From Lachnospiraceae bacterium (lineage in GTDB: Bacteria; Bacillota; Clostridia; Lachnospirales; Lachnospiraceae), in assembly GCA_017450485.1 (NCBI GenBank), contig JAFSTN010000048.1, forward strand, positions 1 to 59,969: a stretch of DNA of 59,969 bases. Reading direction: 5' to 3'. Position numbers and translations under genes: made by a program. The notes under the pieces are model-generated. The model was not told the origin of the DNA, did no database searches, and worked only from the letters and a program-made list of their open reading frames with translations. Positions within the stretch are counted from its first letter, which is position 1, and the number at the start of each line of letters is the position of its first letter. Below are positions 7,204 through 44,064 of the stretch, piece after piece.

Positions 7204-8499
7204 GTGAATATAGCAGTTATAGGGGCGGATGCCGAATCAGTACATGCCATTGAGATGGCGCATAAGCTCGGTCACCGGGTAATAGCGGTAGACAATGATC
7301 CGCGTGCCGCGGGAGCGGCAGTGGCAGATGTACATCACCGCATAGATATTTCGCATGAGGATGAGGTTATAGAAGCCCTCAGGGGAGAGCATATTGACTT
7401 CGTGATGACCACCCCCATAGGACGTCATCTGACTACCATCGGAGCAGTCAATGATGCACTCGGACTTCCGGGTATCAGCAGGGCGTGTGCTTCGGTCTGC
7501 TCTGATAAATACGAATTTCATAATAAGCTTCGTAACCGCAAACTCAGGGACGGACACTGCTATCTGGTCAACGCCTCCGCAGCGGTCGATCCTTCGGTTG
7601 TGGAATACCCTGCGGTATTTAAGCCCAGATTCGGATCTCATGGCAGATCCGTGCATTATCTGAGCGATGCCGACGGTTTCGGAGCGTTGCAGGCGGATAT
7701 ATGGGGGACGCATGCGGCAGCGGAACATAAGGGCACTTCGGCAGCGAATGCCGCTGAGTTTGCCAGAAATGTCAAGCTGGCTATGGAGGAACACCAGAGA
7801 AAGGCTTCTCTTGAGGACGATCCATCGGATGATTATATTCTCGAAGAGGCACTGCCCGGTACGGAGTATGCCGTGGATGGATTCGTGGAGGGCTGTAATT
7901 ATGAGGTCATATTGATCAGGCGTAAGACTCTGACGCCTCCGCCCGCCAGACAGGCCGTATCGTACATGGTGGTCATGCCCGGTGAGGATGACCGTGTGGA
8001 ATCGCTCATACGCAGCTATATGGGGCGCCTGTGCGAGGTTCTCGGCTTCAAGGACTGTATGCTTCATGCGGATGTGTGCATACTCGGCAGGACCGTAAAT
8101 GCCATAGAAGTATCCGCATCTCCGGCAGGCAGGCATGTATATGACGAACTGATCCCCATGGCCACGGGAGTGGATATGTCGGAGCAGTTTCTGAGATATA
8201 TGAGCGGTGGGGCGCATTGTTTCCAACCGCTGAACATGAAACGGATGATGCTCAGATACTTTGACATGGAGCACTGCTTCGTGCACGGAATTCCCGACAG
8301 GTCGACCATTGAGAGCAGACTGCCCGACGGAGTGAGGCTTCGCGACTGGGAGTGCAATATGAGACTGCTGGATTATCTGGGCAGCATCAACGATGAAGAA
8401 TCGCTTCTGAAGAGAGGATATTATATAATGGACGGGCCGTCCGAGAATAAACTTGAGGAGGCCGCCGCAATAGTCAGAGACAGTTTCGAGCTGAAATGA
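7204..8499 (+). CDS. ATP-grasp family ligase
   Basis: 431 residues, read from a GTG start preceded by AGGGGA. An N-terminal Rossmann-like preATP-grasp domain (MNIAVIGADAES; then DNDPRAAGAAVADVHH) is followed by the ATP-grasp fold (VFKPRFGSHGRSVH; EEALPGTEYAVDGFVEG). The family joins a carboxylate to an amine through an acylphosphate. The C-terminal metal motif reads IEVSASPAGRH where ExNxR is expected, so the usual Asn is Ser. Being the first gene of the glycan locus, it could attach an amino acid to a uronic acid or make a cytosolic precursor; the substrate is unknown. Confidence 0.75.
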   Translation: MNIAVIGADAESVHAIEMAHKLGHRVIAVDNDPRAAGAAVADVHHRIDISHEDEVIEALRGEHIDFVMTTPIGRHLTTIGAVNDALGLPGISRACASVCSDKYEFHNKLRNRKLRDGHCYLVNASAAVDPSVVEYPAVFKPRFGSHGRSVHYLSDADGFGALQADIWGTHAAAEHKGTSAANAAEFARNVKLAMEEHQRKASLEDDPSDDYILEEALPGTEYAVDGFVEGCNYEVILIRRKTLTPPPARQAVSYMVVMPGEDDRVESLIRSYMGRLCEVLGFKDCMLHADVCILGRTVNAIEVSASPAGRHVYDELIPMATGVDMSEQFLRYMSGGAHCFQPLNMKRMMLRYFDMEHCFVHGIPDRSTIESRLPDGVRLRDWECNMRLLDYLGSINDEESLLKRGYYIMDGPSENKLEEAAAIVRDSFELK

Positions 8500-8524
8500 C
8501 GAACTGCGCAGAGATGGGAAATAC

Positions 8525-10276
8525 ATGATCAAGATCCTGAAAAAGATGAACCTGCTTCTCGACGGGAAGCAGAAGGCCCAGATGGGTGGAATAATGATAA
8601 TGATGCTGATCGGAGGTGTGCTCGAGAGTGTGGGAGTGGCCATGGCCATACCCGTGTTGCAGGTCATCATCGACCCGACGACCACACAGACCAATAAGTA
8701 CATGCATGCCATATACGAAGGCTTCCATATGACGAGCACGTTTCAGTTCGCAATCACTGCGATGATAGGTCTGATATTTGCGTTCGTGATCAAGAATGTC
8801 TTTCTCTTTTTCCTGACCAAGGTCGAGCTCAGATTCGTATACACCAATCAGTTCGCCACGTCGAGGCGCATGATGATCAACTTCATGCAGAGACCGTATG
8901 AGTACTATCTGGGTGCCGATACCGCAGTCATTCAGCGCAGTATCACATCGGATGTGAATAATATGTACGGACTGATCTTAAGCGTCCTGCAGTTGTTCAG
9001 TGAGTATATTGTTTTTGCGTGTCTCGTTATCGTGCTGCTGTACATGGATGCCGGCATGGTCGTATCTATCACGGCATTGCTGGTACTGGTGCTCGTGGCG
9101 GTCAAGTATATCCTCAAGCCGATCATGCGCAAGGCGGGCGAGGATAATCAGGACTACTACAGCGGGCTGTTCAAATGGATCGACCAGTCGGTGACCGGTA
9201 TCAAAGAGATCAAGATCGCGAACCGTGAGCCCTACTTTATCAACGAGTACGCCAAGTGCGGAGAGGGATATGTGAATGCGGTACAGAAATACAACCTCTA
9301 TAATGCGACTCCGCGTCTGCTGATAGAGACCGTGTGTGTGGCCGGTCTTGTATCATATATGATGATACAGCTGATATCCGGAGCACCGGTTACCACGATG
9401 CTGAGCCAGATCGCCGCATTCGGTGTGGCTGCGATGAGACTTCTGCCCAGTGCGAACCGTATCAACAACTACCAGACCGCGATATCGTATTTTGAACCTT
9501 TCTTCATGGGAGTGACCGACGATCTGCAGACCGAGATCCATGATGAAAATGTGGATTATGATGCCGAGACCTATGTCCGTGTGGAAAATGTCGAGAAACT
9601 GCCGGTCCGTACATCCATAGAGCTGAAGGATATCGTATATCATTATCCGGACAGCGATATGTATGTATTTGATCATGCCGATTTGACGATCCCCGTGGGC
9701 AAGTCGGTGGGCATAGTCGGAACCTCCGGGGCCGGCAAGACCACTATCGTGAATATCATGCTCGGCCTGCTTGATACGGAGTCGGGGCAGATCCTGGCCG
9801 ATGGAGTGAATGTACGCGAACATTATCGTGAGTGGCTCAAGAACATCGGGTATATTCCGCAGACTATTTTCATGCTGGATACGAGCATCCGCAAAAATGT
9901 GGCGTTCGGAATCCCCGATGATGAGATAGATGATGAGAAAGTATGGGCAGCCCTGAAGGAGGCACAGCTGGATGAATATGTACGCAGTCTTCCGGAGGGC
10001 CTCGATACGGGCATAGGCGAACGCGGCATACGACTGTCGGGCGGTCAGCGCCAGCGTATAGGTATCGCGAGAGCGCTGTTTGAGGATCCCGAGGTACTGG
10101 TGCTCGATGAAGCGACTTCCGCTCTCGACAACGAGACAGAGACAGCGATCATGGAATCCATCAACAGACTGCACGGGCGTAAGACGCTCATTATCATAGC
10201 CCACCGTCTGCAGACCATAGAGAAGTGTGATATGGTATACAGAGTTGAGGATGGGCACGTAAGCATCGAAAGGTAA
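8525..10276 (+). CDS. ABC transporter, fused permease and ATPase, PglK-like lipid-glycan flippase
   Basis: 583 residues in half-transporter layout: six membrane segments within about 20-330, then an ATPase domain with Walker A GTSGAGKTT (399-407), signature LSGGQ (504-508) and Walker B VLVLDEA (525-531). The N-terminal GGVLESVGVAMAIPVL resembles PglK/WlaB flippases, which translocate undecaprenyl-linked oligosaccharides. It sits beside GtrA in the glycan locus, and no MOP-family (Wzx) flippase is seen in the window, so it probably exports the lipid-linked glycan. A general MsbA-like lipid exporter is the alternative. Confidence 0.82.
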   Translation: MIKILKKMNLLLDGKQKAQMGGIMIMMLIGGVLESVGVAMAIPVLQVIIDPTTTQTNKYMHAIYEGFHMTSTFQFAITAMIGLIFAFVIKNVFLFFLTKVELRFVYTNQFATSRRMMINFMQRPYEYYLGADTAVIQRSITSDVNNMYGLILSVLQLFSEYIVFACLVIVLLYMDAGMVVSITALLVLVLVAVKYILKPIMRKAGEDNQDYYSGLFKWIDQSVTGIKEIKIANREPYFINEYAKCGEGYVNAVQKYNLYNATPRLLIETVCVAGLVSYMMIQLISGAPVTTMLSQIAAFGVAAMRLLPSANRINNYQTAISYFEPFFMGVTDDLQTEIHDENVDYDAETYVRVENVEKLPVRTSIELKDIVYHYPDSDMYVFDHADLTIPVGKSVGIVGTSGAGKTTIVNIMLGLLDTESGQILADGVNVREHYREWLKNIGYIPQTIFMLDTSIRKNVAFGIPDDEIDDEKVWAALKEAQLDEYVRSLPEGLDTGIGERGIRLSGGQRQRIGIARALFEDPEVLVLDEATSALDNETETAIMESINRLHGRKTLIIIAHRLQTIEKCDMVYRVEDGHVSIER

Positions 10277-10281
10277 AAGGC

Positions 10282-10785
10282 ATGAAGAAGATATGGGAAC
10301 TGTATAAGAAACACCGCGAGGTCATAAGCTATCTGTTCTGGGGCGGCGTGGCTTTCGTACTGAGTGTGCTGCTGTTCTGGGTATTTACCAGCAGGCTCGG
10401 CATGAGCGAGGTCCCGGCGAATACCGTAGACTGGATCATCCTCGTCATATTCACGTTTTTCACGAATAAGCTTTTTGTTTTCAGGAGCAAGGCCGGCTCG
10501 GCGAAGGCATTCGGCAAGGAATTCGTATCGTTCATACTGGCCAGGCTCTTCACACTGCTGCTTGAGGACGTGATCATATGGGTCGGCTGTGACAAACTCG
10601 GATTTGATTCGGAGATCGGCAGTCTAGTCGTTAAGCTGATCGCGCAGTTCGTAGTGATCGTGAGCAACTATGTTCTGAGCAAGCTGATTGTTTTCAGACA
10701 CAGGAAACCCGATGTCCCGGCCGACACGCCGGAGATATCCGGGGACACGGAAAATACTGAGACTTCGGATGAGCATGAATCATAA
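10282..10785 (+). CDS. GtrA-family membrane protein
   Basis: 167 residues with four membrane helices (about 15-35, 43-65, 78-98, 112-135) and a hydrophilic acidic tail of ~30 residues. GtrA proteins are thought to move undecaprenyl-phosphate-linked monosaccharides across the membrane. The motif pair FWGGVAFVLS and TFFTNKLFVFRSK is characteristic. The matching GtrB-type synthase is at 17604. Starts six bases after the ABC gene. Confidence 0.88.
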   Translation: MKKIWELYKKHREVISYLFWGGVAFVLSVLLFWVFTSRLGMSEVPANTVDWIILVIFTFFTNKLFVFRSKAGSAKAFGKEFVSFILARLFTLLLEDVIIWVGCDKLGFDSEIGSLVVKLIAQFVVIVSNYVLSKLIVFRHRKPDVPADTPEISGDTENTETSDEHES

Positions 10786-12637
10786 GGGAGATACCCTGAC
10801 AAAAGGTTTTCGGCTTTTTCCCGAGATCCTCTACATCATCATTCTCATAATCTATCCGCTCATTGGCGCGGATCAGGGAGTCAGTCCCGTCGATCCGACG
10901 TATTCGCTCGCTAATTTCAGATTCTTCAATGACATGTCCGGGACGTGGATCATTGCCACATTTCTAGCCAATGCTGTGGGGCACCTGCTGATGTGCCTGC
11001 CCGGTGCATCGTGCTTTCTCGGGATGAACATATATACATCCCTGATAGTCGGTCTGATCGCCGTATCTGCTTATCTCTCTCTGCGTTCATACATCAATGT
11101 ACATATCCTGTTTGTATCGGAGCTGCTGGCGCTGGGACTCTGCTCATGCCCGTCGGTTCTGCTCTACAATTATCTGACTTATCTGCTTTTCACACTCGCG
11201 GCGCTGCTCGTATATACGGGACTGATGAGAGAGGATGACAGATGTCTGCTGGCGGCCGGTGTCATCCTGGGTGTAAATGTGTTCGTCAGACTGCCGAACG
11301 TGACAGAGTGTGCTCTGATACTCGCCGTGTGGTATGACGGTGTACGTAACCGGAGAAAACTCGCTGTGGTCGCCCTGTCTACGGTCAGGTGCATAGCCGG
11401 ATTCCTCGCAGGTGCGCTGTGCATGTGGATATGGGTGGCGGTCAGGTACTCGCCGGCAGCTTATACCGACATGATACGAAACATGTTCGCCATGACCGAT
11501 ACAGCGGTGGATTATAAGCCCGTATCAATGATAGGCGGTATGTTTGAGGATTACCTCTATGCCGGTAAGTGGATACTGATGTGGCTGGCCGGATTCGTGA
11601 TATGCGCTGTCGTATATTATCTGACCGGGCGTCTGATACGGCGTGGAGACTCGTCCGGCAAAAAGATCCGGTGGGCGATACGGACAGCCTCGATGGTTTT
11701 CGTATTCGGTGCGATCCTCCGCATCTGTTACGGGCAGGGGATGTTTTTCTTCAGATACTATGAATACGGCAGTGTATACTTCCTGACGGTCGTACTGCTG
11801 TGCATGGTGACGATCGCCGCGCTCGTGATGGCATTCACGACGGTTGATGTGCTTTCGGTCATAGTGCTTATAGTCATCTATGTGACCTGTATCGGATCCA
11901 ACAACGGGCTCTATCCGGTCATGAACAATATGTTTGTTGTCGCACCATATACCGGCTGGCTGATATACAGGGGAGTCGGGTATCTGCGCACCGCTGAAGC
12001 CGGCGTGACCCCGGATACAGGAGCCGGCACCGGAACCGGCACAGGCGATGCCGTCGGAACCGTCGTGCGGGCCCTCGAAGCCGCCGCGACTGCACTTCTT
12101 GCAGTCCTCATGGTCTGCACTTTGATCCAGAGCGTGGGCTTCCATTCTGAGTTCGCATTTGGTGACGGAGTATGGGGAGAACCCAGAGATGCAGTCATAA
12201 CCGGCCACAGGATAGTCGATCATATGCATACGACTTCGGCAAATGCCGCAGCTCTTCAGGGACTTATGGACTATATGGACGGTGCACGCTCGGAAGGTGA
12301 TACGCTGCTTGCATATGATGAGCTTCCGGGGCTCGGATATCTGCTTGATATGCCTCCCGCCCTGTCTACTTTCTGGCCCGATCTGCGCAGCTACAACTAT
12401 TATGAATGGGAGCGCGATCTGAAATATGTGCACCACCCGGTCATCATAGTATCACTTGAGGTAGCGGCGTGGATGGACGGGGACGATGAGGTGATAGATT
12501 ACTACGGGATCGACCGCGAGAAGTTCGCATCCGACCGTAAACTGGCCGATCTGACTGCCTATATCCGTGACGAGGGATACGTTCAGACGTATACAAACGA
12601 CCTCTGCTCGGTATATATTTATAGTTATGAAGAGTAA
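10775..12637 (+). CDS. Multi-pass membrane protein, candidate GT-C glycosyltransferase
   Basis: About 620 residues with roughly a dozen hydrophobic segments and a soluble C-terminal domain of ~150 residues. After the first helix comes a short outer loop with acidic residues (GADQGVSPVDPTYS), the position where GT-C transferases keep catalytic acids. Membership is inferred from topology and location, not from a firm motif. The start is uncertain: ATG at 10769 or 10775 overlaps GtrA, and no good ribosome binding site precedes either. A Gly/Thr-rich stretch (GAGTGTGTGDAVG) lies in a central cytoplasmic loop. Confidence 0.55.
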   Translation: MNHKGDTLTKGFRLFPEILYIIILIIYPLIGADQGVSPVDPTYSLANFRFFNDMSGTWIIATFLANAVGHLLMCLPGASCFLGMNIYTSLIVGLIAVSAYLSLRSYINVHILFVSELLALGLCSCPSVLLYNYLTYLLFTLAALLVYTGLMREDDRCLLAAGVILGVNVFVRLPNVTECALILAVWYDGVRNRRKLAVVALSTVRCIAGFLAGALCMWIWVAVRYSPAAYTDMIRNMFAMTDTAVDYKPVSMIGGMFEDYLYAGKWILMWLAGFVICAVVYYLTGRLIRRGDSSGKKIRWAIRTASMVFVFGAILRICYGQGMFFFRYYEYGSVYFLTVVLLCMVTIAALVMAFTTVDVLSVIVLIVIYVTCIGSNNGLYPVMNNMFVVAPYTGWLIYRGVGYLRTAEAGVTPDTGAGTGTGTGDAVGTVVRALEAAATALLAVLMVCTLIQSVGFHSEFAFGDGVWGEPRDAVITGHRIVDHMHTTSANAAALQGLMDYMDGARSEGDTLLAYDELPGLGYLLDMPPALSTFWPDLRSYNYYEWERDLKYVHHPVIIVSLEVAAWMDGDDEVIDYYGIDREKFASDRKLADLTAYIRDEGYVQTYTNDLCSVYIYSYEE

Positions 12638-13706
12638 AAGGGAAACTAATTACGAATTGCTGCGTATCGTGTCGATGGTGATGATCACGGTACTGCATTA
12701 TATGAGCCACGGCGGGATGCTTACACCCTGGCATGAGGGTGCTGCGGCCATGACCGTGCCCAATGCAGCGGCATGGGGGCTCGAAGCCATCTGCCTCCCG
12801 GGAATGAGCTGCTTTATCATGCTGTCCGGCTATTTCCTGAAGCCTGAGAAATGGAGGGCATCCAGGATCGTGGAGCTGATACTCCAGTGTCTGTTTTACT
12901 CGCTGACGATCCCGCTTATCGCGGTTCTGACCGGGGCAGTGAGTGTGGCCGGTATCGACAGATATGACATCCTGAACTGGTGCTTCCCTATAGGTTCGGA
13001 GTGCTGGTGGTTCATGAGTTCGTACATCATCCTCTATGCGCTTTCGCCGCTTCTGTCTGCGGGAGCTGAGAAAATGAGCAAAACGAACCTCAGGTGGCTG
13101 ATCCTGTGCATGGTTTTCTTTGAATCCGCGGAAAAGACCATACTTCCGGTGGTTCTTCCGACCGACAGATTCGGATATGATCCGCTGTGGATGGTCACCA
13201 TGTTCCTGGTAGCCAGATATATCAAGCTCTACGGAGCGGAATTTCTGGATAAGAAGGTCGTTCCAGTCATCACATATATACTCAGCTGTGCAGGCATGTT
13301 TGCGATGAGCTTTATCACGGGCAGGATAGCTGCGGGGGGCGTGGAAGGTCTGGTCAGGTATTCGGAGATGCCCTATACCTGCAATTATTTCCTGACGATG
13401 TTTGCCAGCATCTCTCTGTTCTGTATATTCAGGCATATCAGAATCGAAGACGGACTGTTTTCGCGTATAGTGCTGTTTATATCGCCACTCCTGCTCGGAG
13501 CTTACCTGGTACATGAGCATCCGCTCATCAGAGGACTGTGGCCCGGCTGGTTTTTTGCCGATCGGGTGAGGGGAAGTATGATTTTTGCGCCTGTGACGAT
13601 TGCAGGTGCGCTGACAGTACTGATCGTGGGATGCGCATATGAGTGGATCCGGTCCGGTGTGGCCGGAATTATAAAGAAAAGGAGCGTAAATAAGCACACC
13701 GGCTGA
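12627..13706 (+). CDS. Acyltransferase 3 family membrane protein
   Basis: O-acyl (often O-acetyl) transferase of the OafA type, which modifies surface sugars using donors from the cytoplasm. The 359 residues have about ten helices. Family landmarks are NYELLRIVSMVMITVLHY with its conserved His, CFIMLSGYFL, WWFMSSYIILYALSP and a C-terminal AYLVHEHP. The ATG at 12627 overlaps the preceding stop by 11 bases. Confidence 0.87.
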   Translation: MKSKRETNYELLRIVSMVMITVLHYMSHGGMLTPWHEGAAAMTVPNAAAWGLEAICLPGMSCFIMLSGYFLKPEKWRASRIVELILQCLFYSLTIPLIAVLTGAVSVAGIDRYDILNWCFPIGSECWWFMSSYIILYALSPLLSAGAEKMSKTNLRWLILCMVFFESAEKTILPVVLPTDRFGYDPLWMVTMFLVARYIKLYGAEFLDKKVVPVITYILSCAGMFAMSFITGRIAAGGVEGLVRYSEMPYTCNYFLTMFASISLFCIFRHIRIEDGLFSRIVLFISPLLLGAYLVHEHPLIRGLWPGWFFADRVRGSMIFAPVTIAGALTVLIVGCAYEWIRSGVAGIIKKRSVNKHTG

Positions 13707-13726: not shown

Positions 13727-14860
13727 ATGATCAATTTTAATGTACCGCCTTTTACGGGCAAAGAAATCGAATATATCAGGGAAGCCGTGGACAATCAGAA
13801 GATCTGCGGCGACGGACCTTTTACACATAAGTGCTCGGAGTGGATAGAGCAGCGTACAGGTACGGCCAAAGCACTGCTTACCACTTCATGTACGCATGCG
13901 ACCGAGCTGGCCGCGCTTCTGCTGGATATAAAGGAGGGTGATGAAGTCATCCTGCCTTCATATACGTTCGTATCGACGGCAGATGCATTTGTGCTGCGCG
14001 GAGCGACCGCTGTGTTCGTGGATATCCGCCCCGATACGATGAATATCGATGAGAATCTGATAGAGGATGCGATCACCGACAGGACGAGGGCTATCCTGCC
14101 CGTGCATTATGCGGGTGTGGGCTGTGAGATGGATACCATCATGGATATAGCCCGCCGTCACGGTCTGGCGGTCGTGGAGGATGCGGCTCAGGGTATCATG
14201 TCTACTTACAAGGGACGTGCTCTCGGCGCGATAGGAGATTTCGGCTGCTACAGCTTCCATGAGACCAAGAATTACAGCATGGGTGAGGGCGGTGCCCTGC
14301 TCATACAGGATGAGAGATATATAGAGCGCGCGGAGATATTCAGGGAAAAGGGCACTGACCGCAGCAAGTACTACAGAGGGCAGATAGATAAGTACAGATG
14401 GCAGGATTACGGGTCATCCTATCTGCCGAGCGATATGAATGCAGCTTATCTGTATGCGCAGCTCGAGATGGCTGATGAGATCAATGACATCCGGCGTGCC
14501 AGATGGGATCAGTACAGGGAGCTCCTGACTCCGCTTGCGGAGGCCGGACGTATCAGTCTGCCTTTCGTGCCCGAAGACTGCGTTCATAATGCTCATATGT
14601 TTTATATCAAGACGAAAGATATCACCGAGAGATGCGCTCTCATAGATTATCTCAAGGAGCGTGATATCCTGTCGGTATTCCACTATATACCGCTGCATAC
14701 CGCTCCGGCCGGAATTAAATACGGCCGTTTCCACGGAGAGGACAGATACACGACCGCAGAGAGCGAGAGACTTCTGCGGCTCCCGATGTACTACAGACTG
14801 ACTGCAGATGAGGTGACCTATATCTGTGATCAGGTATCATCATTCTATGAATCCCACTGA
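13727..14860 (+). CDS. rffA: dTDP-4-amino-4,6-dideoxygalactose transaminase (RffA/WecE type)
   Basis: PLP-dependent DegT/DnrJ/EryC1/StrS aminotransferase that aminates dTDP-4-keto-6-deoxyglucose to dTDP-Fuc4N. The 377 residues align closely along their length with E. coli RffA: LCGDG-like CGDGPFT, DEVILPSYTFVSTADAFVLRG, VVEDAAQG, the PLP lysine in SFHETKNY, REKGTDRSKYYRGQIDKY, SSYLPSDMNAAYLYAQ and ESERLLRLPMYY. The rmlA/rmlB genes that make its substrate are not in the window. The GNAT gene at 17101 and the formyltransferase at 28983 are candidates for modifying its product. Confidence 0.9.
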   Translation: MINFNVPPFTGKEIEYIREAVDNQKICGDGPFTHKCSEWIEQRTGTAKALLTTSCTHATELAALLLDIKEGDEVILPSYTFVSTADAFVLRGATAVFVDIRPDTMNIDENLIEDAITDRTRAILPVHYAGVGCEMDTIMDIARRHGLAVVEDAAQGIMSTYKGRALGAIGDFGCYSFHETKNYSMGEGGALLIQDERYIERAEIFREKGTDRSKYYRGQIDKYRWQDYGSSYLPSDMNAAYLYAQLEMADEINDIRRARWDQYRELLTPLAEAGRISLPFVPEDCVHNAHMFYIKTKDITERCALIDYLKERDILSVFHYIPLHTAPAGIKYGRFHGEDRYTTAESERLLRLPMYYRLTADEVTYICDQVSSFYESH

Positions 14861-16610
14861 CAGACGCAGCCGCATCGGCGACATATCCATCGCAGTCATC
14901 GTCACCGTGATACTTATCGCGGTGATCAGTATTGCTTTTGATCATTATTACGAGTTCAATGATGATGTCCTGATGAAGGACATACTGTCAGGTGCATACA
15001 CCGGTACCCCGAACGGACTCAATATACAGATGCTCAGCCCTATCGGCTGTCTTTTGGCATTTTTCTATCGTGTTGCACCGCATCTGCCCTGGTATGGCCT
15101 GTTTCTCTGCGGATGCCATTATATGTGCATCCTGCTCCTTGCTTATCGTACGGTGCGTATTTCCCCGGGAAGCTCCGCGAAGATACGTGTGGCTATCGTG
15201 GTTTTTCTGTTTGCCATGGGAGTACTGCTGCCGCATATCGTGATGGCACAGTACACCATCACCGTAGCTATCCTGTCCGCAACGGCGGCTTTGTATTTCT
15301 ACACGATACCGACAGGCCGGTCCGGCGGGGAATTTATATTAAGCGCTATACTGCCTGCTTTACTGGTGATCCTCGCATTTCAGATCAGGACGGAGATGCT
15401 TCTGCTCATGCTGCCTTACATTGCTGTCACGGGTATAGCCAGATGGAGCCGTGAGAAACATCCTTTTGACAGAGATGTCGCTGCAGGATATGTGGGTACC
15501 GTTCTGATCATTGCTGTCGGGATGATCGTATCATTTGCGATCAACGCTTTCTCATACTCATCGGGGGAGTGGAAGGTCTTCCTGATGGAGTTCGACAACA
15601 GGACCGAACTCTATGATTATCAGTATATTCCGAATTATGAAGAACATATGGAGTTCTATGATTCGATAGACTTAACCGCTGCTGATGTGGCATTGCTTCA
15701 AAACTATGACTATGCGCTGGACGAACGGATAGACGGTGCCGTGCTGGGACAGGTGGCTGCTTATGCCGCATCTCTCAGGGGCGAAACCTTCATATCGAGA
15801 CTGCCGGGCGGTATAAGGGAGTATGTGTACCGGCTCACGCATTTCAAGGACGGCATCTATGAGCTGCTCACGCTGTTCCTGTATACGATGCTGATCATAG
15901 CGGTGAGCTCCGATAAGGACAGGACGCCCAGGCATAAAGCGATGATATTGATCGTCAGAGTGGGCGGACTGATCGTTATGCGCAGCGTATCGTGGATATA
16001 TATCGTATGCGGTCGGAGGGAGCCCGACAGGATAGTGCATTCGTTATATATCATAGAGATTATCATACTTTTTGCGATGATCATCACGGAGTTTAACGGC
16101 CGGCTTAAAGAAGGCAGGTATCTGCGCATGATCACCATCATAGTCCTCATGGCAGGCGGGCTTGTCATGCTGCCTGTAAGCGTACGACGTGTCAGGGCGC
16201 ATGTAGAGGCGCAGGAGCAGATAAACAGATTCGACCGGGCTATAGCGGAGTATTGTTCGGCCCATCCCGATTCGTTCTATTTCGAGGATGTATACAGTAC
16301 GATAATCGACGGTGATTCTTTTAATGAGAAAATGTTCGAGGATGTGGATAATTCCATAAAGAACAGGGATCTGATGGGCGGATGGATTGCAAACAGTCCT
16401 CTTTACAGGGAAAAACTCACCCATTACGGTGTGAGCGGAGTGGCGGATGCGATACTTAATAACGACAATGTGTTTATCATTTGTTCGGATGAATATGATA
16501 TGGATTGGGTCAGCGACTATTATGCCGACAGAGAGATCGCGGTGAGCATTGACCGGATCAATGATATCGAGAGTGTATATGGAGTGTATGAGGTGAACCC
16601 GGTAAAGTAA
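14847..16610 (+). CDS. Multi-pass membrane protein, candidate GT-C glycosyltransferase
   Basis: About 587 residues with around ten to twelve hydrophobic helices and a C-terminal soluble domain of ~120 residues. Directly after the first helix is YYEFNDDVLMKDILSG; paired acidic residues at this spot are typical of GT-C membrane transferases and related polysaccharide proteins. The ATG at 14847 is preferred (overlap of 14 bases with rffA) over an in-frame ATG at 14826, but neither has a good ribosome binding site. A terminator follows at once, so this ends the first transcription block of the locus. Confidence 0.55.
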   Translation: MNPTDRRSRIGDISIAVIVTVILIAVISIAFDHYYEFNDDVLMKDILSGAYTGTPNGLNIQMLSPIGCLLAFFYRVAPHLPWYGLFLCGCHYMCILLLAYRTVRISPGSSAKIRVAIVVFLFAMGVLLPHIVMAQYTITVAILSATAALYFYTIPTGRSGGEFILSAILPALLVILAFQIRTEMLLLMLPYIAVTGIARWSREKHPFDRDVAAGYVGTVLIIAVGMIVSFAINAFSYSSGEWKVFLMEFDNRTELYDYQYIPNYEEHMEFYDSIDLTAADVALLQNYDYALDERIDGAVLGQVAAYAASLRGETFISRLPGGIREYVYRLTHFKDGIYELLTLFLYTMLIIAVSSDKDRTPRHKAMILIVRVGGLIVMRSVSWIYIVCGRREPDRIVHSLYIIEIIILFAMIITEFNGRLKEGRYLRMITIIVLMAGGLVMLPVSVRRVRAHVEAQEQINRFDRAIAEYCSAHPDSFYFEDVYSTIIDGDSFNEKMFEDVDNSIKNRDLMGGWIANSPLYREKLTHYGVSGVADAILNNDNVFIICSDEYDMDWVSDYYADREIAVSIDRINDIESVYGVYEVNPVK

Positions 16611-16641
16611 AAACGACGGAGCATCCGCTTCCGCCGTTTTT
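16610..16641. terminator. Bidirectional terminator between convergent genes
   Basis: AAAACGACGGA pairs with TCCGCCGTTTT (16610-16620 with 16630-16640, one A-C mismatch) and is flanked by T-runs on both strands. It ends the membrane-protein gene on the plus strand and the small minus-strand gene at 16640. Confidence 0.75.
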
Positions 16642-16903: not shown

Positions 16904-17084
16904 GCTACCTCCCGGCCGTCCATGGCTCTTTACTTATTAACAGTGTTGATAAGTTTGGTTGACCGATCCTTCGGTCTGTGTCATCGCTTCTGTAATATAT
17001 ATCGGCAGAAGACAGAAATAGTTAACATAAATTACTCCGTTCTGCGGTCCAAATGCGTAAAAAGATGTCAATAAAGCGTAATAA

Positions 17085-17093: not shown

Positions 17094-17100
17094 TCAATCT

Positions 17101-36287: not shown

Positions 36288-37171
36288 TAATACTGCAGAT
36301 GAGTGGCGGACTGGGGAATCAGATGTTCCAGTACGCTTTGTATTTAAAACTGAAAAAACTTGGCAGAGAAGTCAAGTTTGATGACGAGACCAGTTATGAG
36401 CTTGATAATGCCAGACCCATCCAGCTGGCCGTATTCGGGATAACGTATCCACGCGCTACCAGACAGGAAGTCACGGATATGAGAGATTCGTCTCCGCTCT
36501 GGCGTGACCGGATCAGACGCAAGCTTCACGGCCGTAATCTGAAACAATATACGGAAGAACATTATTCTTATGATGAGCATGTATTCGAACTGGATGATAC
36601 TTATCTGAGAGGATATTTTCAGACAGAGAAGTATTTCTTCGATATAAAAGACGAAATATATGATCTGTATAAGCTCAGACAGGATCTGATCACCGCGGAG
36701 ACACGCAGTCTGGAGGAGGAGATCGCATCGCACCCGCAGACTGTGAGTATACATATCCGCCGCGGTGATTATATGACCATAGAAGGCGGAGAGATATTTG
36801 CCGACATCTGTACCGATCAATACTATGATGCGGCTATGCAGTACATGTTGGAAAAGTACCCCGATGCCGTTTTTTACCTTTTTACCAATGATCCGTCATG
36901 GGCTGAGTTTTTTTGCAATACACATTCGGATCTCAATATCCGGGCGATCAAGGGCAATACCGAATATTTCGGCTACCTGGATATGCATCTGATGAGCTGT
37001 TGCAGACACCATATAATAGCAAACAGCTCGTTCTCATGGTGGGGAGCATGGCTGGGTAGAGACCGGGATGGCATTATCATAGCCCCTGAGCCCTGGTTTA
37101 ACAATGATCATTGCCGGGATATCCACACCGACAGGATGCTCCGGATGGATCCTGAAGGGAAACTGTTATGA
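36284..37171 (+). CDS. GT11-family (alpha-1,2-fucosyltransferase-like) glycosyltransferase
   Basis: 295 residues, the usual GT11 length. It starts with MSGGLGNQMFQYALYLKL, has the donor-binding HIRRGDYM motif and ends with SSFSWWGAWL. The family normally uses GDP-L-fucose; no gmd or fcl gene is in the window, so another donor is possible. Overlaps asnB by four bases. Confidence 0.9.
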   Translation: MIILQMSGGLGNQMFQYALYLKLKKLGREVKFDDETSYELDNARPIQLAVFGITYPRATRQEVTDMRDSSPLWRDRIRRKLHGRNLKQYTEEHYSYDEHVFELDDTYLRGYFQTEKYFFDIKDEIYDLYKLRQDLITAETRSLEEEIASHPQTVSIHIRRGDYMTIEGGEIFADICTDQYYDAAMQYMLEKYPDAVFYLFTNDPSWAEFFCNTHSDLNIRAIKGNTEYFGYLDMHLMSCCRHHIIANSSFSWWGAWLGRDRDGIIIAPEPWFNNDHCRDIHTDRMLRMDPEGKLL

Positions 37172-37187
37172 TAGAGGACGTGATCCG

Positions 37188-38600
37188 ATGAACCAGAAAA
37201 ACAGGATAATAGAAAGATACGGAATATGGCTTGCAGATATGGTCTGTATTCTGGTCATATTCATATCTTCCACATATATTAGGTTCGGTAATTTCAGGGA
37301 TATGGGTGATAAGTACTCCCACTTCGCTGTATGTATAGCTTTTGTGCTGTTCTGCACCATGTACAACTTCTTTGCCGACTGGAATTCCAACTTTATGCGC
37401 CGTGGCCTGTGGCAGGAGTTCGTGGCGGTTGCGAAGTACAACATAACCATGGTTCTCGTAGTTGGTATGTTCATGTATTTCATGCAGTGGTCAGGTTATT
37501 TCTCGCGAGCCGTCATGATCTACTTCATTTTCGGCAACCAGATGCTGACCTGGATCACACGTATCATTCTTAAACGAATGCTGTACATATACTACCGCTC
37601 GGATTCCAGCGCGATCAGACTGCTGGTAATAGCCGATTCCGAGAATATCGCGCGTACCATTGAAGCATTGCGTGAGAAACTGGGCATACATGTCAAAATA
37701 GTTGCCGCAGTATGCCTGGACGAGGATATGCAGGGGGAGGAGATACGCGGTATCCCGATCGTGGCCAACAGGGACAATCTGAATGATGTTGTCAGACAGA
37801 TGGCAGTAGACGAGATGTTCCTGACCATACCGCACAGCCCCATGTCGGATCTCGAGCAGATCATCAGGGATTTCGATGAAATGGGCATAGTGGTACATCG
37901 AAAACTCGAAGCTGATGTATATGCCAGAAATCGAAGTTATATTCAGCGTTTCGGCGGATATACCGTCATCACCTGCGGACATATGAATTACAGCTATAAG
38001 AGGCTGCTTCTCAAGCGGGCCACCGATATTGTCGGGGGCTTGGTAGGTACGCTTTTTACGGTGATATTGACCATTTTTATAGCTCCGGCCATCAAGATAG
38101 ATTCACGGGGGCCGGTATTCTTCAGTCAGACCAGAGTCGGCCGTAACGGGCGCAGATTCAAGATATATAAGTACCGTTCGATGTATCAGGATGCTGAGGC
38201 ACGTAAGAATGAACTGATGGATAAGAATGAGGTCGACGGACTGATGTTCAAGATGGAAGATGACCCCAGGATCACTCGCGTGGGCAAATTCCTACGCAAG
38301 ACAAGTCTGGATGAGTTCCCTCAATTTCTGAATGTTCTGAGGGGAGATATGTCTCTGGTCGGTACACGTCCCCCCACAGAGGATGAATTTGAGAAATACA
38401 ATACCTATTACCGTCGCCGTCTGTCGATGACACCCGGACTGACCGGCCTGTGGCAGGTGAGCGGGCGCAGCGATATTACGGATTTCGATGAAGTGGTCAA
38501 GCTGGATCTTGAATATATAGACAACTGGAGTATAGGTTTGGATCTCAGACTTCTGGCTAAGACCGTGGTTGTAGTGCTTTTCAGACGCGGGTCGAAATAG
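37188..38600 (+). CDS. Polyprenyl glycosylphosphotransferase (WbaP/CpsE-like sugar transferase)
   Basis: About 470 residues. Four N-terminal helices (about 10-130), a CoA-binding-like Rossmann domain, a fifth hydrophobic segment and the catalytic core: FFSQTRVGRNGRRFKIYKYRS, the SLDEFPQFLNVL pair, GTRPPT and TPGLTGLWQVSGRS. It transfers a hexose-1-phosphate to undecaprenyl phosphate. It is a second initiator besides the PglC-like enzyme at 24782. The ATG at 37188 is chosen because GAGGA lies upstream and the alternative at 37104 is within the GT11 gene. Confidence 0.9.
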   Translation: MNQKNRIIERYGIWLADMVCILVIFISSTYIRFGNFRDMGDKYSHFAVCIAFVLFCTMYNFFADWNSNFMRRGLWQEFVAVAKYNITMVLVVGMFMYFMQWSGYFSRAVMIYFIFGNQMLTWITRIILKRMLYIYYRSDSSAIRLLVIADSENIARTIEALREKLGIHVKIVAAVCLDEDMQGEEIRGIPIVANRDNLNDVVRQMAVDEMFLTIPHSPMSDLEQIIRDFDEMGIVVHRKLEADVYARNRSYIQRFGGYTVITCGHMNYSYKRLLLKRATDIVGGLVGTLFTVILTIFIAPAIKIDSRGPVFFSQTRVGRNGRRFKIYKYRSMYQDAEARKNELMDKNEVDGLMFKMEDDPRITRVGKFLRKTSLDEFPQFLNVLRGDMSLVGTRPPTEDEFEKYNTYYRRRLSMTPGLTGLWQVSGRSDITDFDEVVKLDLEYIDNWSIGLDLRLLAKTVVVVLFRRGSK

Positions 38601-38610: not shown

Positions 38611-39669
38611 GTGAAGGTTTCTGTCATAGTTCCTGTATACAATCTCAGGGAGCATCTGTCCAAATGTCTGGAATCTCTTGCGGCGCAGACTTACTCCGAT
38701 CTGGAAATCATTCTGGTTGATGACGGTTCTGTGGACGGCAGCGGTGATATCTGTGACGAATATGCGCATGATCATGAGGATGCACGGGTAGTGCATAAAA
38801 CAAACGGCGGACTTGTATCCGCCTGGAAGGCCGGGGTTGAAGCCGCGACAGGCACTTATGTCATGTTTGTCGACGGTGATGACTGGATCGATCCCGGGAT
38901 GGTCGAGGCAATGGCTGCTCATGTGACCGGTTCCGAGGGAGAAGTGATATGCAGCGATTATGTGATCGAACGCAGGTTGAAGTCCGGGAACGGATCATCA
39001 TACATAAAAACGAGCGAGTGCGTATATCAGACATTAGCTCCCGGAGAATATGACAGAGCATTTATTGAAGAAAAGATAGTGCCGGATCTTCTCGGTAATG
39101 AAAAGCGCCCTATCCATTTTTCCAGATGCATGAAACTGATCGACATAAAGCTTGTTAAAGATAACATGCGCTATGCCGATGAAGCGGTGAAAATGGGCGA
39201 GGATTCACTTATCATGATCCCGGTATTGTTGGATGCTCAGCGTATATGTGTGCTTGATCATAAAGCATTTTATCATTATGAGCTCGTAGGCAGTTCGATG
39301 ATCCATCGTTATGATCCGGCGTGCTTTGATAATCTTAAGCGGCTTATAAGCGGATTCAAGAAGATCCTGAACGATAAATTCGGGGATTCCGGGGAAAAAT
39401 ACGCGTTGATGCTTCGCAAACTGGATGCGGAGATCGTGGTTATGATGCTGTATGTCCTGAAGAACGAACTCAGGAATCCCGCCGCAGATTATAAGGATCG
39501 CGTGAAGGCTGTCAGTACGAACAAGGATATCGCAGATACGGTCCGAAGAACGGAAGTGACATTTTCCGCTAAACAGAATCGTCTGCTGTATGCATTGCTG
39601 AAGAAGCCGACGCGGTTCCGTATATTTCTGCTCAGGACCCTGATGAATATGAATGATGCCAGGTATTGA
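38611..39669 (+). CDS. GT2-family glycosyltransferase
   Basis: 352 residues with GT-A landmarks: VSVIVPVYNLREHLSKCLESL, VDDGSVDGSGDICDEYA and MFVDGDDWIDPGM (metal-binding DGD). Read from a GTG behind AGGGGG. The C-terminal ~150 residues are helical and probably define acceptor choice. Similar in plan to the next gene. Confidence 0.9.
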   Translation: MKVSVIVPVYNLREHLSKCLESLAAQTYSDLEIILVDDGSVDGSGDICDEYAHDHEDARVVHKTNGGLVSAWKAGVEAATGTYVMFVDGDDWIDPGMVEAMAAHVTGSEGEVICSDYVIERRLKSGNGSSYIKTSECVYQTLAPGEYDRAFIEEKIVPDLLGNEKRPIHFSRCMKLIDIKLVKDNMRYADEAVKMGEDSLIMIPVLLDAQRICVLDHKAFYHYELVGSSMIHRYDPACFDNLKRLISGFKKILNDKFGDSGEKYALMLRKLDAEIVVMMLYVLKNELRNPAADYKDRVKAVSTNKDIADTVRRTEVTFSAKQNRLLYALLKKPTRFRIFLLRTLMNMNDARY

Positions 39670-40753: not shown

Positions 40754-41946
40754 CGGATTCATCAAGCGTATCAAAAGAATATCTGATGTATATGCATGCA
40801 GGCAGCGCAAATCACGGCTGTGAGGCTATAGTGCGCAGTCTGACCGGCATTCTGGGCGGCAGACCGACTGTCATCAGCAATAATCCGGATGAAGATGAGA
40901 GCGTTGATCTGGGCAGAATATGCGATGTGATCCCCGTCAGGCGTTATGAGGACAGCATGATGCTCAAGGCCCGGTTCTATGCCCACCGCAGGCTGACGGG
41001 GCGTGCCGATGCACAAATGGGATATGCATACAGACATGCCGCTCCGTTTGACAGATACCGAATGGCCCTGTCCATAGGCGGAGATAATTATTGCTATGAT
41101 GATGCGCTGGTAAATCTGCGCGGAGCAAATCAGCTTTTTGCAAAGTACGGTATCCCGACGTCTCTGGTGGGATGCTCTGTGGAGCCGGCATTGATGAAAC
41201 GTCCGGATGTGGTTGAAGATCTGTCGTTATACAGCTGTATCATAGCCCGTGAAACTGATTCATACCGTGCCCTCAGGGAGGGGCTTCCTGCGAAATGCTC
41301 CGATCATGTATATCTGCTTCCCGATCCTGCTTTTGCACTGAATAAACGTGAATGTAAGCTGCCGGATGGCTTCAGGGAGGGGCATACTGTTGGTATCAAT
41401 ATCTCTCCCATGATACTGAACTATGAGTCACCCGACGCTCCGGGCATCATCATCGACAATTATAAACACCTGATAGAAACCATACTGAGTGAAACCTGCG
41501 ATGTGATCATGCTGATCCCTCATGTGGTAACGAGATATTCGGATGATCGCGTGCCGGTACGTGCACTTTATGATATGTATGCGGATACGGGACGCGTGAT
41601 CATTGCGCCGGATTCGACCGCCGAGGAACTCAAATATATGATAAGCAGATGCAGGCTGCTGATAGCAGCCCGTACACATGCGTCGATAGCCGCATATTCC
41701 ACGTATGTACCGACGCTCGTGGTCGGCTATTCGGTAAAGGCGATGGGGATCGCAAATGATCTATTCGGTTCATATGAAGGCTATGTATGTCCGGTACAGG
41801 ATCTGCACGTAAAGTCGGATCTGACGGATGCATATATGGATCTGGAAGCCCATGCGGATGAGCAGAGGGACATCCTGAAGGAACGTATACCGGAATGGAT
41901 AAAACGTACATCCGGGATCGCGGATATTTTGAAAAATGAATTATAA
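40750..41946 (+). CDS. Polysaccharide pyruvyl transferase family protein
   Basis: 398 residues. The N-terminal HAGSANHGCEAIVRSL and the C-terminal RLLIAARTHASIAAYSTYVPTL with its catalytic-region RTH motif are typical of the family, which transfers pyruvate ketal groups from phosphoenolpyruvate to sugars, adding negative charge. Overlaps the preceding gene by ATGA. Some members act in other glycosyl reactions, so the donor is not certain. Confidence 0.85.
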   Translation: MTDSSSVSKEYLMYMHAGSANHGCEAIVRSLTGILGGRPTVISNNPDEDESVDLGRICDVIPVRRYEDSMMLKARFYAHRRLTGRADAQMGYAYRHAAPFDRYRMALSIGGDNYCYDDALVNLRGANQLFAKYGIPTSLVGCSVEPALMKRPDVVEDLSLYSCIIARETDSYRALREGLPAKCSDHVYLLPDPAFALNKRECKLPDGFREGHTVGINISPMILNYESPDAPGIIIDNYKHLIETILSETCDVIMLIPHVVTRYSDDRVPVRALYDMYADTGRVIIAPDSTAEELKYMISRCRLLIAARTHASIAAYSTYVPTLVVGYSVKAMGIANDLFGSYEGYVCPVQDLHVKSDLTDAYMDLEAHADEQRDILKERIPEWIKRTSGIADILKNEL

Positions 41947-43048
41947 AAGAGCACTTACTGAAGAAGCCGTCAGGCTTCTGGATATATCGGACAGGCCGGA
42001 CCTGTATCACAGCCTGAGGCGTTGGGCCAGAGAGCATATCAGGCACGAGACCGTTGCACCTATCGACACCGTCAACTGGCCGAAGGGCAGTCTGATGTGC
42101 GGACTTATGCATATGGCAGGCCGGCTTCAGAGTGCGGATACCTCTGCGGACAGAGCGGTGGCCATACTGGCGATGGCATCGGTTCAGAATTATCTGGACA
42201 GGTGGATTGGGCAGGAAGCTCCGTTGTATACCGTGGATGATGTGCTTGCGGCACAGGCTTTGCTCGGTCTGGCGGAAACATACAAAACCGAAGGCCCCGA
42301 TCTGTACATGCATTATATGAAGGTCGCCGGAGGTGTGATGAGATTTCTGTATGAGCACGATACCGATGCCGAGGGCGTTCTTCCTTACAGGCCTGCGCAC
42401 AAGACGGGAGAGGTTTTTGCAGACAGCTGCGGAATGGTTCTGCCTTTTGCCGTCAGATACGGGCTAATGAAGCAGGATGACGATGCGATCGAGCTTGGGT
42501 TGAGACAGATATCAGGCGTTATGCAACATATGATCGATCCCGGAACCGGTCTTCCATGGCACGTATATACCCTGGATGAGACAGGTGAGGTCCATCATAG
42601 AGGGACTCCGGGCTGGGGGCGTGCACTGGGGTGGATCATGTATGGCCTGGGTGGCGCCGTGGAAGCATTTGATCTGTATCCGCCGGAAACTCCGGCAGCC
42701 ATTATGGCGAAGAAAGCTGTCACCGCTCATCTGGAGAAAATGTCGGAGACAGCTGTCAGGTACAGGCGCAGGGACGGACTGTTTGGTTCAGTGACAGGCG
42801 ATGAATCTTCACCGGCTGATACTTCGGCATCTGCCATGATCATATACGGTCTCAAACAGAGAGACTTCAATGCTGACAGGGGAGTACGCAGACCTGACGG
42901 TGAGGGTTATATAGAACCCATTTTGCCCTATATATCTTCCTCAGGTGAAGTAAGACAGGCTCAGGGCGAGTGCATGGATGTAGGAGTATATTCGGATGTA
43001 TATGCTTCATATCCCTGGTCGGTTGGTATGACGATGATGCTGATATGA
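41936..43048 (+). CDS. GH88/GH105-like unsaturated glucuronyl hydrolase
   Basis: 370 residues in an (alpha/alpha)6 barrel pattern with the family motifs FADSCGMVLPFAVRYG (candidate catalytic Asp), RGTPGWGRALGWIMYGL and ADTSASAMIIYGL. Members remove unsaturated uronic acids from lyase products. No signal peptide is seen, so it acts in the cytoplasm. It overlaps the pyruvyl transferase gene by 11 bases. A catabolic enzyme in the middle of a biosynthetic run is unusual; recycling of the locus's own glycan is one explanation. Confidence 0.82.
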   Translation: MNYKRALTEEAVRLLDISDRPDLYHSLRRWAREHIRHETVAPIDTVNWPKGSLMCGLMHMAGRLQSADTSADRAVAILAMASVQNYLDRWIGQEAPLYTVDDVLAAQALLGLAETYKTEGPDLYMHYMKVAGGVMRFLYEHDTDAEGVLPYRPAHKTGEVFADSCGMVLPFAVRYGLMKQDDDAIELGLRQISGVMQHMIDPGTGLPWHVYTLDETGEVHHRGTPGWGRALGWIMYGLGGAVEAFDLYPPETPAAIMAKKAVTAHLEKMSETAVRYRRRDGLFGSVTGDESSPADTSASAMIIYGLKQRDFNADRGVRRPDGEGYIEPILPYISSSGEVRQAQGECMDVGVYSDVYASYPWSVGMTMMLI

Positions 43049-43101
43049 TGTGAATCGAGCTGATGAAAAGCTGATCTGATGAAAGAGTTGATCTGTCGAA
43101 A

Positions 43102-44064
43102 ATGGTAATTATCAGGATTGTGGGCGGTCTGGGAAATCAGATGCAGCAATACGCCCTTTCTCGAAAGTTAATATCGCTGGGCCGTGAGGTCTGCCTGGAT
43201 ATATCCACATACTCAGACGCAGACTACCGCGGGACGGTCAGGTCACTTGAAATCGATCGCTTTCCCGGTGTCCGTTATGATACAGCCACTGAGGAACAGA
43301 TAGCCGCGATCCGCGGTGACGGCAGCCTGATAGGACGCATACGCAACCGTATACTGCCGGCTTGCTCGGGATATGTCCATGAAAAAGGGATGTATATGCC
43401 CGGGATATTTAAGCGGGATAACGTATATCTGGACGGCTACTGGAGTGCCGAGAAATACTATGCTGATATCATGCCGGAGCTTAGGGATATCTATGATTTC
43501 GCCGAAATGCTCGGAAGAGACCCGGTTGACGGAAGTGACACGGAGATGGCCGGCACCGGCTCGGTCGGGGATGCTCACAGCGGACTCAGGGAGATGGCTC
43601 GTTGTATAACCGGAAACGGATATTCATGTTCGGTACATATACGCAGAGGCGATTACCTGACAGCAGAGAACAGTGCTTTTTTCGGTGGTATAGCCACGGA
43701 CGGGTATTATGAGGCTGCTTTCTCATATGTGAAAGAGAGACATCCTGAGGTGAGATTCTTTATTTTTTCCGATGATCCGGGATATGTGAAAGAGAAATAC
43801 GGAGATGATCCGTCGTGCGTGGTCGTTGATGTGAACCACGGCGATGATAACATGTACGACATATATTTGATGAGCCTGTGCACCGCTCATATATGTGCGA
43901 ACTCTTCGTTCAGCTTCTGGGGAGCCAGACTGGATCCGAAGAGGGAGAGTGCATTGTGCATCAGGCCTACCATACATGCCGCATCACAGGTGTTTGATCC
44001 GGAGATCATGCGTGATCTGTGGAAAAACTGGGTATTTATCGATCCGCAGGGGAACCTGCGCTAA
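43102..44064 (+). CDS. Second GT11-family glycosyltransferase
   Basis: 320 residues with the same motifs as the gene at 36284: RIVGGLGNQMQQYALSRKL, HIRRGDYL and SSFSFWGARL, but about 25 residues longer, with an Asp/Gly/Ser-rich insertion near 140-160. It is the last gene of the glycan locus; its 3' end overlaps the convergent gntR gene by 29 bases. Confidence 0.88.
   Translation: MVIIRIVGGLGNQMQQYALSRKLISLGREVCLDISTYSDADYRGTVRSLEIDRFPGVRYDTATEEQIAAIRGDGSLIGRIRNRILPACSGYVHEKGMYMPGIFKRDNVYLDGYWSAEKYYADIMPELRDIYDFAEMLGRDPVDGSDTEMAGTGSVGDAHSGLREMARCITGNGYSCSVHIRRGDYLTAENSAFFGGIATDGYYEAAFSYVKERHPEVRFFIFSDDPGYVKEKYGDDPSCVVVDVNHGDDNMYDIYLMSLCTAHICANSSFSFWGARLDPKRESALCIRPTIHAASQVFDPEIMRDLWKNWVFIDPQGNLR

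What the first reader, a model, noticed from the sequence alone, without database searches (positions are those of the whole stretch)
7204..44064. A ~37 kb composite glycan locus that mixes four assembly logics
One contiguous plus-strand run contains a PglF/PglC/PglK-like set, a WbaP-like initiator, a GtrA/GtrB three-component set and a Wzy-like polymerase. It lacks a MOP-family Wzx and a Wzc/Wzz regulator. The combination does not match a standard Wzx/Wzy or ABC-2 capsule locus and may represent a distinct glycan pathway in this lineage.
Basis: partly seen in the sequence, partly recalled or inferred. Interest (0 to 1): 0.75.

Follow-up and report, generated by a model that had tools for sequence, protein, structure and literature searches.

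The report
ABC-flippase/Wzy-type surface-glycan locus
This is a large sugar-polymer gene cluster, shared by many Lachnospiraceae gut bacteria, in which an ABC-type flippase sits where a Wzx flippase is usually expected beside a Wzy-like enzyme, so it looks like a real variant of a known surface-glycan pathway rather than a random mixture.

Summary
The gene content is real: 28 plus-strand genes at 7204-44064, including a PglK-like ABC flippase, GtrA/GtrB, PglF, PglC, a WcaJ-type initiator and a 923-aa Wzy/WaaL-fold protein. No MOP match lies on the contig; no Wzz match in the 91%-complete genome. An 87-aa minus-strand gene (16640-16903) splits the run.

It is not a species-specific patchwork. 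The PglK1...WecE-M594-GNAT-GtrB-DUF6020-Wzy-PglF-PglC-TviB order recurs in Lachnospiraceae: PglK1 lies 7.7-19 kb upstream of Wzy, same strand, in 45 of 49 genomes searched. In G010, PglK and Wzy overlap by 4 bp.

In two relatives (G115, G096) most of the window's glycan genes lie in one cluster of about 80 kb with three PglK paralogues, and a MOP gene lies between the pyruvyl-transferase and GH88 genes. Here those two genes overlap; PglK2 and a MOP homologue sit on other contigs. So the missing Wzx is partly relocation, but no MOP match was listed in the PglK1-Wzy half of any genome checked.

Best reading: a PglK-flipped, Wzy-type pathway with GtrA/GtrB/GT-C decoration. The Wzy-like protein carries an N-terminal jelly-roll domain, a candidate for chain-length control without Wzz. 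Function is inferred, not shown.

The parts
7204..8499 (+). ATP-grasp ligase, role unknown
   Evidence: PF13535 1.4e-8; 56-96% in 6 of 6 same-genus relatives
8525..10276 (+). PglK1: PglK-like ABC flippase
   Evidence: NF050066 PglK 9.8e-103, below equivalog cut-off; best solved relatives C. jejuni PglK; own clade
10282..10785 (+). GtrA-like membrane protein
   Evidence: PF04138 7.3e-20
10775..12637 (+). M649: GT-C-fold membrane protein (ORF open from 10688; start at 10775 chosen by me)
   Evidence: no Pfam or NCBIfam; model pLDDT 84, fold matches STT3/PglB/ArnT and other GT-C entries
12627..13706 (+). Acyltransferase 3 (ORF open from 12567; start chosen by me)
   Evidence: PF01757 6.1e-20
13727..14860 (+). 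WecE-like dTDP-4-amino-4,6-dideoxy-sugar transaminase
   Evidence: TIGR02379 633.9 bits, over cut-off
14847..16610 (+). M594: polytopic membrane protein, putative glycosyltransferase (ORF open from 14826; start chosen by me)
   Evidence: NF047440 1.7e-4, below cut-off; 61 of 67 loci with 9 kb upstream of Wzy
16640..16903 (-). 87-aa protein of unknown function with inferred ATT start
   Evidence: coding-type substitutions and conserved GGGAGGT in 6 of 6 sequences; no Pfam
17053..17607 (+). GNAT acetyltransferase, PseH-like
   Evidence: PF13302 2.8e-16; TIGR03585 74.9 bits, cut-off 93.1
17604..18560 (+). GtrB/ArnC-like polyprenyl-phosphate glycosyltransferase
   Evidence: PF00535; NF007986 3.9e-53, below cut-off; no GtrB hit between GNAT and Wzy in G002 and G004
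18526..20154 (+). DUF6020 membrane protein, GT-C suspected
   Evidence: PF19484 2e-28; GT-C assignment not tested by fold
20164..22935 (+). Wzy/WaaL-fold protein with N-terminal jelly-roll domain (residues 33-187)
22922..24778 (+). PglF-like nucleotide-sugar 4,6-dehydratase
   Evidence: PF02719 6.6e-122
24782..25507 (+). PglC-like phosphoglycosyltransferase
   Evidence: PF02397 1.4e-55; missing in G001, G005, G006
25482..26618 (+). GT4 glycosyltransferase
   Evidence: PF13692 7.2e-29
26644..27960 (+). TviB-like nucleotide-sugar dehydrogenase
   Evidence: TIGR03026 over cut-off, best NF011729
27948..28937 (+). TviC-like epimerase
   Evidence: NF011728 9.1e-80, below cut-off
28983..29915 (+). 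Sugar formyltransferase
   Evidence: PF02911; NF005414 4.2e-37
29919..31187 (+). GT4 glycosyltransferase
   Evidence: PF00534
31141..32271 (+). GT4 glycosyltransferase
   Evidence: PF00534
32277..34160 (+). AsnB-type amidotransferase 1
   Evidence: PF00733 4.2e-97
34353..36287 (+). AsnB-type amidotransferase 2
   Evidence: PF00733 7.1e-98
36284..37171 (+). GT11 glycosyltransferase
   Evidence: PF01531 2e-26
37104..38600 (+). WcaJ/EPS_sugtrans-type initiating transferase
   Evidence: TIGR03025 394.7 bits, over cut-off
38611..39669 (+). GT2 glycosyltransferase
   Evidence: PF00535
39653..40753 (+). GT2 glycosyltransferase
   Evidence: PF00535
40750..41946 (+). Polysaccharide pyruvyl transferase
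   Evidence: PF04230 1.7e-18
41936..43048 (+). GH88-type glycoside hydrolase
   Evidence: PF07470 5.2e-24
43102..44064 (+). GT11 glycosyltransferase
   Evidence: PF01531 3.7e-18

Best explanation
The locus makes a lipid-linked surface heteropolysaccharide by a Wzy-type route in which a PglK-type ABC transporter takes the place of Wzx. Proposed steps: a PglC- and/or WcaJ-type enzyme starts a repeat unit on undecaprenyl phosphate; GT4, GT2 and GT11 enzymes extend it with modified sugars (a 6-deoxy-amino sugar via PglF, uronic acids via TviB/TviC, amides via the AsnB-type enzymes, a formyl group, pyruvate); PglK1 flips it using ATP; the large Wzy/WaaL-fold protein joins the units outside. In parallel WecE and GNAT make a dTDP-4-acetamido-sugar that GtrB loads on undecaprenyl phosphate, GtrA flips, and GT-C enzymes add outside as a branch. 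Shown by sequence or fold: gene families, linkage, conservation, the WaaL-type fold, the GT-C fold of M649, no MOP match here. Inferred: every substrate, the flipping role of PglK1, polymerase rather than ligase, the sugar identities. The WcaJ half is a second unit which in relatives lies beside PglK2 and a MOP gene; in this genome those homologues are on other contigs.
Against: PglK1 scores far below the PglK equivalog cut-off (344.5 of 1000 bits), and ABCB-type exporters score nearly as well as PglK in the solved-structure search. Wzy_C is marginal by Pfam, and the best fold match, WaaL, is a ligase. Other MOP proteins exist in the genome and could act in trans. PglC and its GT4 are missing in 3 of 6 same-genus relatives (G001, G005, G006), and no GtrB hit lies between GNAT and Wzy in 2 of 6 (G002, G004). 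No chemical or genetic data.
Confidence: 0.55

Rival explanations
1. The large Wzy/WaaL-fold protein is a ligase, not a polymerase: PglK1 flips a finished oligosaccharide or a chain made elsewhere, and this protein transfers it to the cell wall or another acceptor.
For: Best fold match is the WaaL ligase. In 26 loci a second 400-540 aa ORF follows TviB and the one scanned is a weak Wzy_C match, which could be the polymerase there.
Against: The window genus and other loci lack that second protein, and it has no HxHN motif in 26 of 26. LCP proteins, the usual wall-attachment enzymes of Gram-positives (recalled), are present in 6 of 6 genomes.
Confidence: 0.2
2. A MOP flippase acts in trans for the whole locus (for example the C27 protein) and PglK1 exports something else.
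For: 7 PF01943 matches elsewhere in the genome; the C27 MOP is related (27-31% identity) to the one in the G115 and G096 clusters.
Against: In those clusters the MOP gene sits in the pyruvyl-transferase/GH88 half, not by Wzy; PglK1 rather than MOP accompanies Wzy, including in G010.
Confidence: 0.12
3. It is a protein-glycosylation system of pgl type, with the Wzy/WaaL-fold protein or the GT-C protein M649 as oligosaccharyltransferase.
Against: STT3 family: 0 of 12 genomes above cut-off, one sub-threshold match in the own genome on C10, 21.6 of 24.5 bits (the control search rang only in archaea). ArnT and arabinosyltransferases match M649 almost as well.
Confidence: 0.1

Closest known systems
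Wzx/Wzy-dependent polysaccharide pathway
   Same: Und-PP-type initiators, cytoplasmic repeat-unit assembly genes, Wzy/WaaL-fold enzyme
   Different: No MOP match in the PglK1-Wzy stretch, ABC flippase instead, no Wzz match in the genome
H. pylori Wzk O-antigen route
   Same: PglK-type ABC flippase used for a surface polysaccharide
   Different: No Wzy found in H. pylori (PMC2841628, passages); here a Wzy/WaaL-fold gene is linked to PglK1
Campylobacter pgl N-glycosylation
   Same: PglK-, PglF- and PglC-like proteins
   Different: No STT3/PglB above cut-off in 12 genomes; no PglE- or PglD-like gene beside PglF in the window
Three-component GtrA/GtrB/GT-C decoration
   Same: GtrA, GtrB-like GT2 and a GT-C-fold protein in one locus
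   Different: Up to three candidate GT-C proteins (only M649 tested by fold); which one pairs with GtrB is unknown
ABC-2 (Wzm/Wzt) polysaccharide export
   Same: ABC transporter in a glycan locus
   Different: Single-chain PglK/MsbA architecture; no ABC-2 permease family in the run

Membership tests
Wzx/Wzy-dependent pathway | MOP-family Wzx in or linked to the locus | tested here: not met
   None on the window contig, none near PglK1 or Wzy in 10 relatives; a MOP gene does occur in the pyruvyl-transferase/GH88 half in relatives
Wzx/Wzy-dependent pathway | Wzy polymerase | tested here: inconclusive
Wzx/Wzy-dependent pathway | Wzz/Wzc chain-length regulator | tested here: not met
   0 PF02706 matches in the own genome (91% complete); 2 of 10 relatives (G004, G005), on contigs other than the locus
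PglK/Wzk ABC flippase | Full-length PglK-type half-transporter | tested here: met
   Best NCBIfam match and best solved-structure matches are PglK, full length
PglK/Wzk ABC flippase | NCBI equivalog cut-off of NF050066 (1000 bits) | tested here: not met
   344.5 bits; so PglK-like, not filed as PglK itself
PglK/Wzk ABC flippase | Flips Und-PP-linked glycan | not testable with these tools
   needs an assay
Campylobacter-type pgl N-glycosylation | STT3/PglB oligosaccharyltransferase | tested here: not met
   0 of 12 genomes above cut-off, one sub-threshold match
ABC-2 Wzm/Wzt pathway | ABC-2 permease | tested here: not met
   no ABC-2 permease family among Pfam matches of the 49 window ORFs scanned
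Three-component Gtr system | GtrA, GtrB and a GT-C enzyme in one locus | tested here: met
   PF04138, ArnC/GtrB-like GT2 below NCBIfam cut-off, M649 GT-C fold
Three-component Gtr system | The three act together on one glycan | not testable with these tools
   needs genetics

The most novel reading that the evidence does not exclude
Many Lachnospiraceae use a distinct Wzy-type route in which a dedicated PglK-clade ABC flippase hands repeat units to a polymerase that carries its own extracytoplasmic carbohydrate-binding-like domain, which sets chain length in the absence of Wzz. In several genomes this unit opens a supercluster of about 80 kb with three PglK-type flippases, each serving its own lipid-linked glycan.
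Probability: 0.3. Interest if true: 0.75.

Novelty: new variant of a known kind. Interest (0 to 1): 0.55.

Why it matters
If true, flippase class and polymerisation mechanism are not tied together: an ATP-driven PglK-type flippase would natively serve a Wzy-type enzyme, where in the passages I read this pairing arose only when H. pylori Wzk was put into an E. coli wzx mutant (PMC2841628). It would also offer a testable substitute for Wzz, a jelly-roll domain fused to the polymerase, and name a conserved surface-glycan locus of a major gut family for which my searches of the held open-licence literature listed no description.

Tried and rejected
Rejected: ORF 16646-17074 (+) as a gene (codon-position changes 11/7/8 against G003, where GNAT gives 8/11/35). 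An RNA element in the 442-bp gap (best Rfam E 0.46): the minus-strand codon pattern explains the conservation. ORF 43895-44749 (no Pfam) was left out as it overlaps 43102-44064. The own-genome C29 PglK-like gene as PglK3 orthologue: it is a long branch outside the PglK3-type rows. Profile comparison of the three membrane families M649, M594 and DUF6020 with each other gave nothing usable (probabilities 17.7, 3.5 and 0.3). Profile searches of solved structures with the Wzy-like, M649 and M594 alignments gave no match. Foldseek on the whole 923-aa model listed no WaaL/Wzy-type chain; its 50 rows are mostly jelly-roll or other beta-rich proteins, none at E below 0.001. A cyanobacterial HepA precedent: the listing showed nothing relevant.

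Misses and dropped rows. The 4 of 49 genomes outside the distance rule are L106 (23.7 kb), L143 (23.0 kb), L142 (87 kb) and L133 (places do not fit one strand). Those distances assume one contig from matching coordinates; contig length was seen to agree for 11 of the 49 (G083, G094, G095, G096, G104, G110, G113, G115, G119, G123, G127; against 32). In one search a distance rule missed a DegT gene in L080, L087, L118 and L139, where the gene strings show one; absences by both are L067 and L128. The MOP-like gene of G115 has no Pfam match and is called by similarity to the C27 and G096 proteins. The HMM was built from three proteins and would miss other MOP kinds. The Fisher values are not quoted because the genomes are related. 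Not used: viral and metagenome scans, phage, plasmid and E. coli collections.
Full report
What is there. The window is a whole contig (C33, 59,969 bases) of a 2.62-Mb, 91% complete assembly. Between PFK, dnaX, ybaB, recR, galM, DUF5711 and CvpA on one side and GHMP kinase, DUF1934 and NlpC/P60 on the other lie 28 plus-strand genes; with the starts I chose, only four gaps exceed 40 bp: 442, 45, 192 and 53 bp. Families are as in the parts list.

A missed gene. The 442-bp gap is not empty. Its plus-strand ORF is not under visible coding constraint, but an 87-88 aa minus-strand ORF is kept in the window and the five relatives aligned, with 83 (G003), 78 (G006), 72 (G005), 74 (G001) and 65 (G002) of 87 residues identical and changes mostly at third codon positions (2/2/4, 6/3/14, 8/8/25, 8/6/23 and 14/7/35). 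It begins with an inferred ATT start after GGGAGGT in 6 of 6; G004 gave no hit among the loci held. Terminator-like hairpins occur on both strands at 16616-16633. So the run is probably two transcription units, 7204-16610 and 17053-44064 (inference). In G004 about 45 kb of other genes lie at this boundary.

How conserved it is. In the six same-genus genomes the order is largely the same where the fetched stretches reach, with these differences: Acyl3 and M649 are swapped in five (not in G003); PglC and its GT4 are missing, with a DegT gene instead, in G001, G005 and G006; DegT, PglC and GT4 are all present in G002 and G004; no GtrB hit lies between GNAT and Wzy in G002 and G004; GT4c is not found in G004. 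A scan of genome contigs (one genome for each of 84,980 species) with the Wzy alignment gave 197 candidates, 80 kept; most titles read Lachnospiraceae or a genus of it, some carry other or vaguer MAG titles such as Bacillus sp., Ruminococcus sp. or Muribaculaceae bacterium. Of 67 loci with at least 9 kb upstream of Wzy, M594 is found in 61, WecE in 60, DUF6020 in 60, GtrB in 58, GNAT in 57 and M649 in 53; of 75 loci with at least 5 kb past PglF, a PglC-type gene follows within 6 kb in 71. A DegT gene follows PglF in nearly all, but not in the window, L067 (= G003) or L128. Many family members lack the locus: among 79 relatives searched only 12 have a Wzy match.

PglK with Wzy. I sent 50 of 62 longer loci for a search of their genomes; 49 were held, and all 49 have a close PglK1 (59-73% identity). 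In 45 of 49 it lies 7.7-19 kb upstream of Wzy on the same strand, median 10.0 kb. Among 79 relatives 11 have both, 1 only Wzy (G041, E 4.8e-5), 1 only PglK1 (G037), 66 neither. In G010 the two genes overlap by 4 bp and are followed by MBOAT and AlgX-like genes. A tree of 38 PglK proteins puts PglK1 (12 rows) and PglK2 (13 rows, with the own-genome C10 copy) in separate clades, 100/100 and 100/99; the PglK3-type rows fall in two groups.

Where the second half comes from. In G115 and G096 most of the window's glycan genes lie in one cluster of about 80 kb from PglK1 to PglK3: PglK1...Wzy...PglC...TviB...Fmt...AsnB1...AsnB2...GT11...PglK2...GT2/GT11/(WcaJ in G115 only)/pyruvyl transferase...MOP...GH88...PglK3 (best-hit identities from about 27 to 80%, so the low ones are family-level likenesses). 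The ATP-grasp gene is found 5.5 kb upstream in G096 (38%) and not in G115. The MOP gene of G096 is a PF01943 match. Listed PF01943 matches fall between the second and a further PglK-type gene in 8 of 20 genomes (G080, G083, G090, G095, G096, G104, G109, G110; listing truncated). In the window pyruvyl transferase and GH88 overlap by 11 bp, so there is no room for a MOP gene. The own genome keeps PglK2 with two of its neighbours on C10 (51-52%, 60-62% and 53% identity) and, on C27, a MOP homologue (27-31%) beside a relative (58-59%) of the GT52-type gene that precedes PglK1 in G115 and G096. I read this as break-up of an older supercluster in this genus; the direction of change was not tested.

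Mechanism and rivals are in their sections. The most likely account is a PglK-flipped Wzy-type pathway with Gtr-type side-branch addition; whether the Wzy-fold protein is polymerase or ligase is the main open point.

Literature. Searches (listings and abstract starts seen). Passages found by term: PMC13121745, PMC12413058, PMC2841628, PMC12004945. I saw no description of this locus or of a natural PglK-type flippase with Wzy in these. Only open-licence papers are held, so this is not proof of absence. What is said of Wzy_C, GT-C, LCP and Gtr mechanisms beyond these is recalled.

Noticed in passing
window 16640-16903 (-): Conserved 87-aa minus-strand gene with an inferred ATT start after GGGAGGT in 6 of 6 same-genus sequences; no Pfam match.
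   Followed up: partly
L147-L151 (G115) and L152-L156 (G096): Cluster of about 80 kb from PglK1 to PglK3 with a MOP-like gene; in G115 also MBOAT, YfhO and DUF6056 proteins and a radical SAM/SPASM protein 88% identical to an ORF on own-genome contig C29.
   Followed up: partly
L177 9153-12439 (G010): PglK-Wzy-MBOAT-AlgX-like gene group with a 4-bp PglK/Wzy overlap; its 514-aa Wzy lacks the N-terminal jelly-roll region.
   Followed up: partly
L044-L047 (G004): About 45 kb of other genes, one ORF of 2749 aa, between M594 and GNAT.
   Followed up: no
L148 12707-14053 (G115) and 26 of the 80 loci: A further 400-540 aa ORF right after TviB in some relatives; the G115 one is a weak Wzy_C match; no HxHN motif in 26 of 26.
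   Followed up: partly
window 24782-26618: PglC and GT4a here are only about 24-44% like those of most relatives while PglF beside them is 67-98% alike; L128 has the closest PglC outside G003 (65%) and also lacks DegT, which suggests replacement of this segment.
   Followed up: no
own genome, contig C27 141772-142263 and 152334-153164: One of the two LCP (wall-attachment type) genes lies about 10 kb from the C27 MOP homologue.
   Followed up: no
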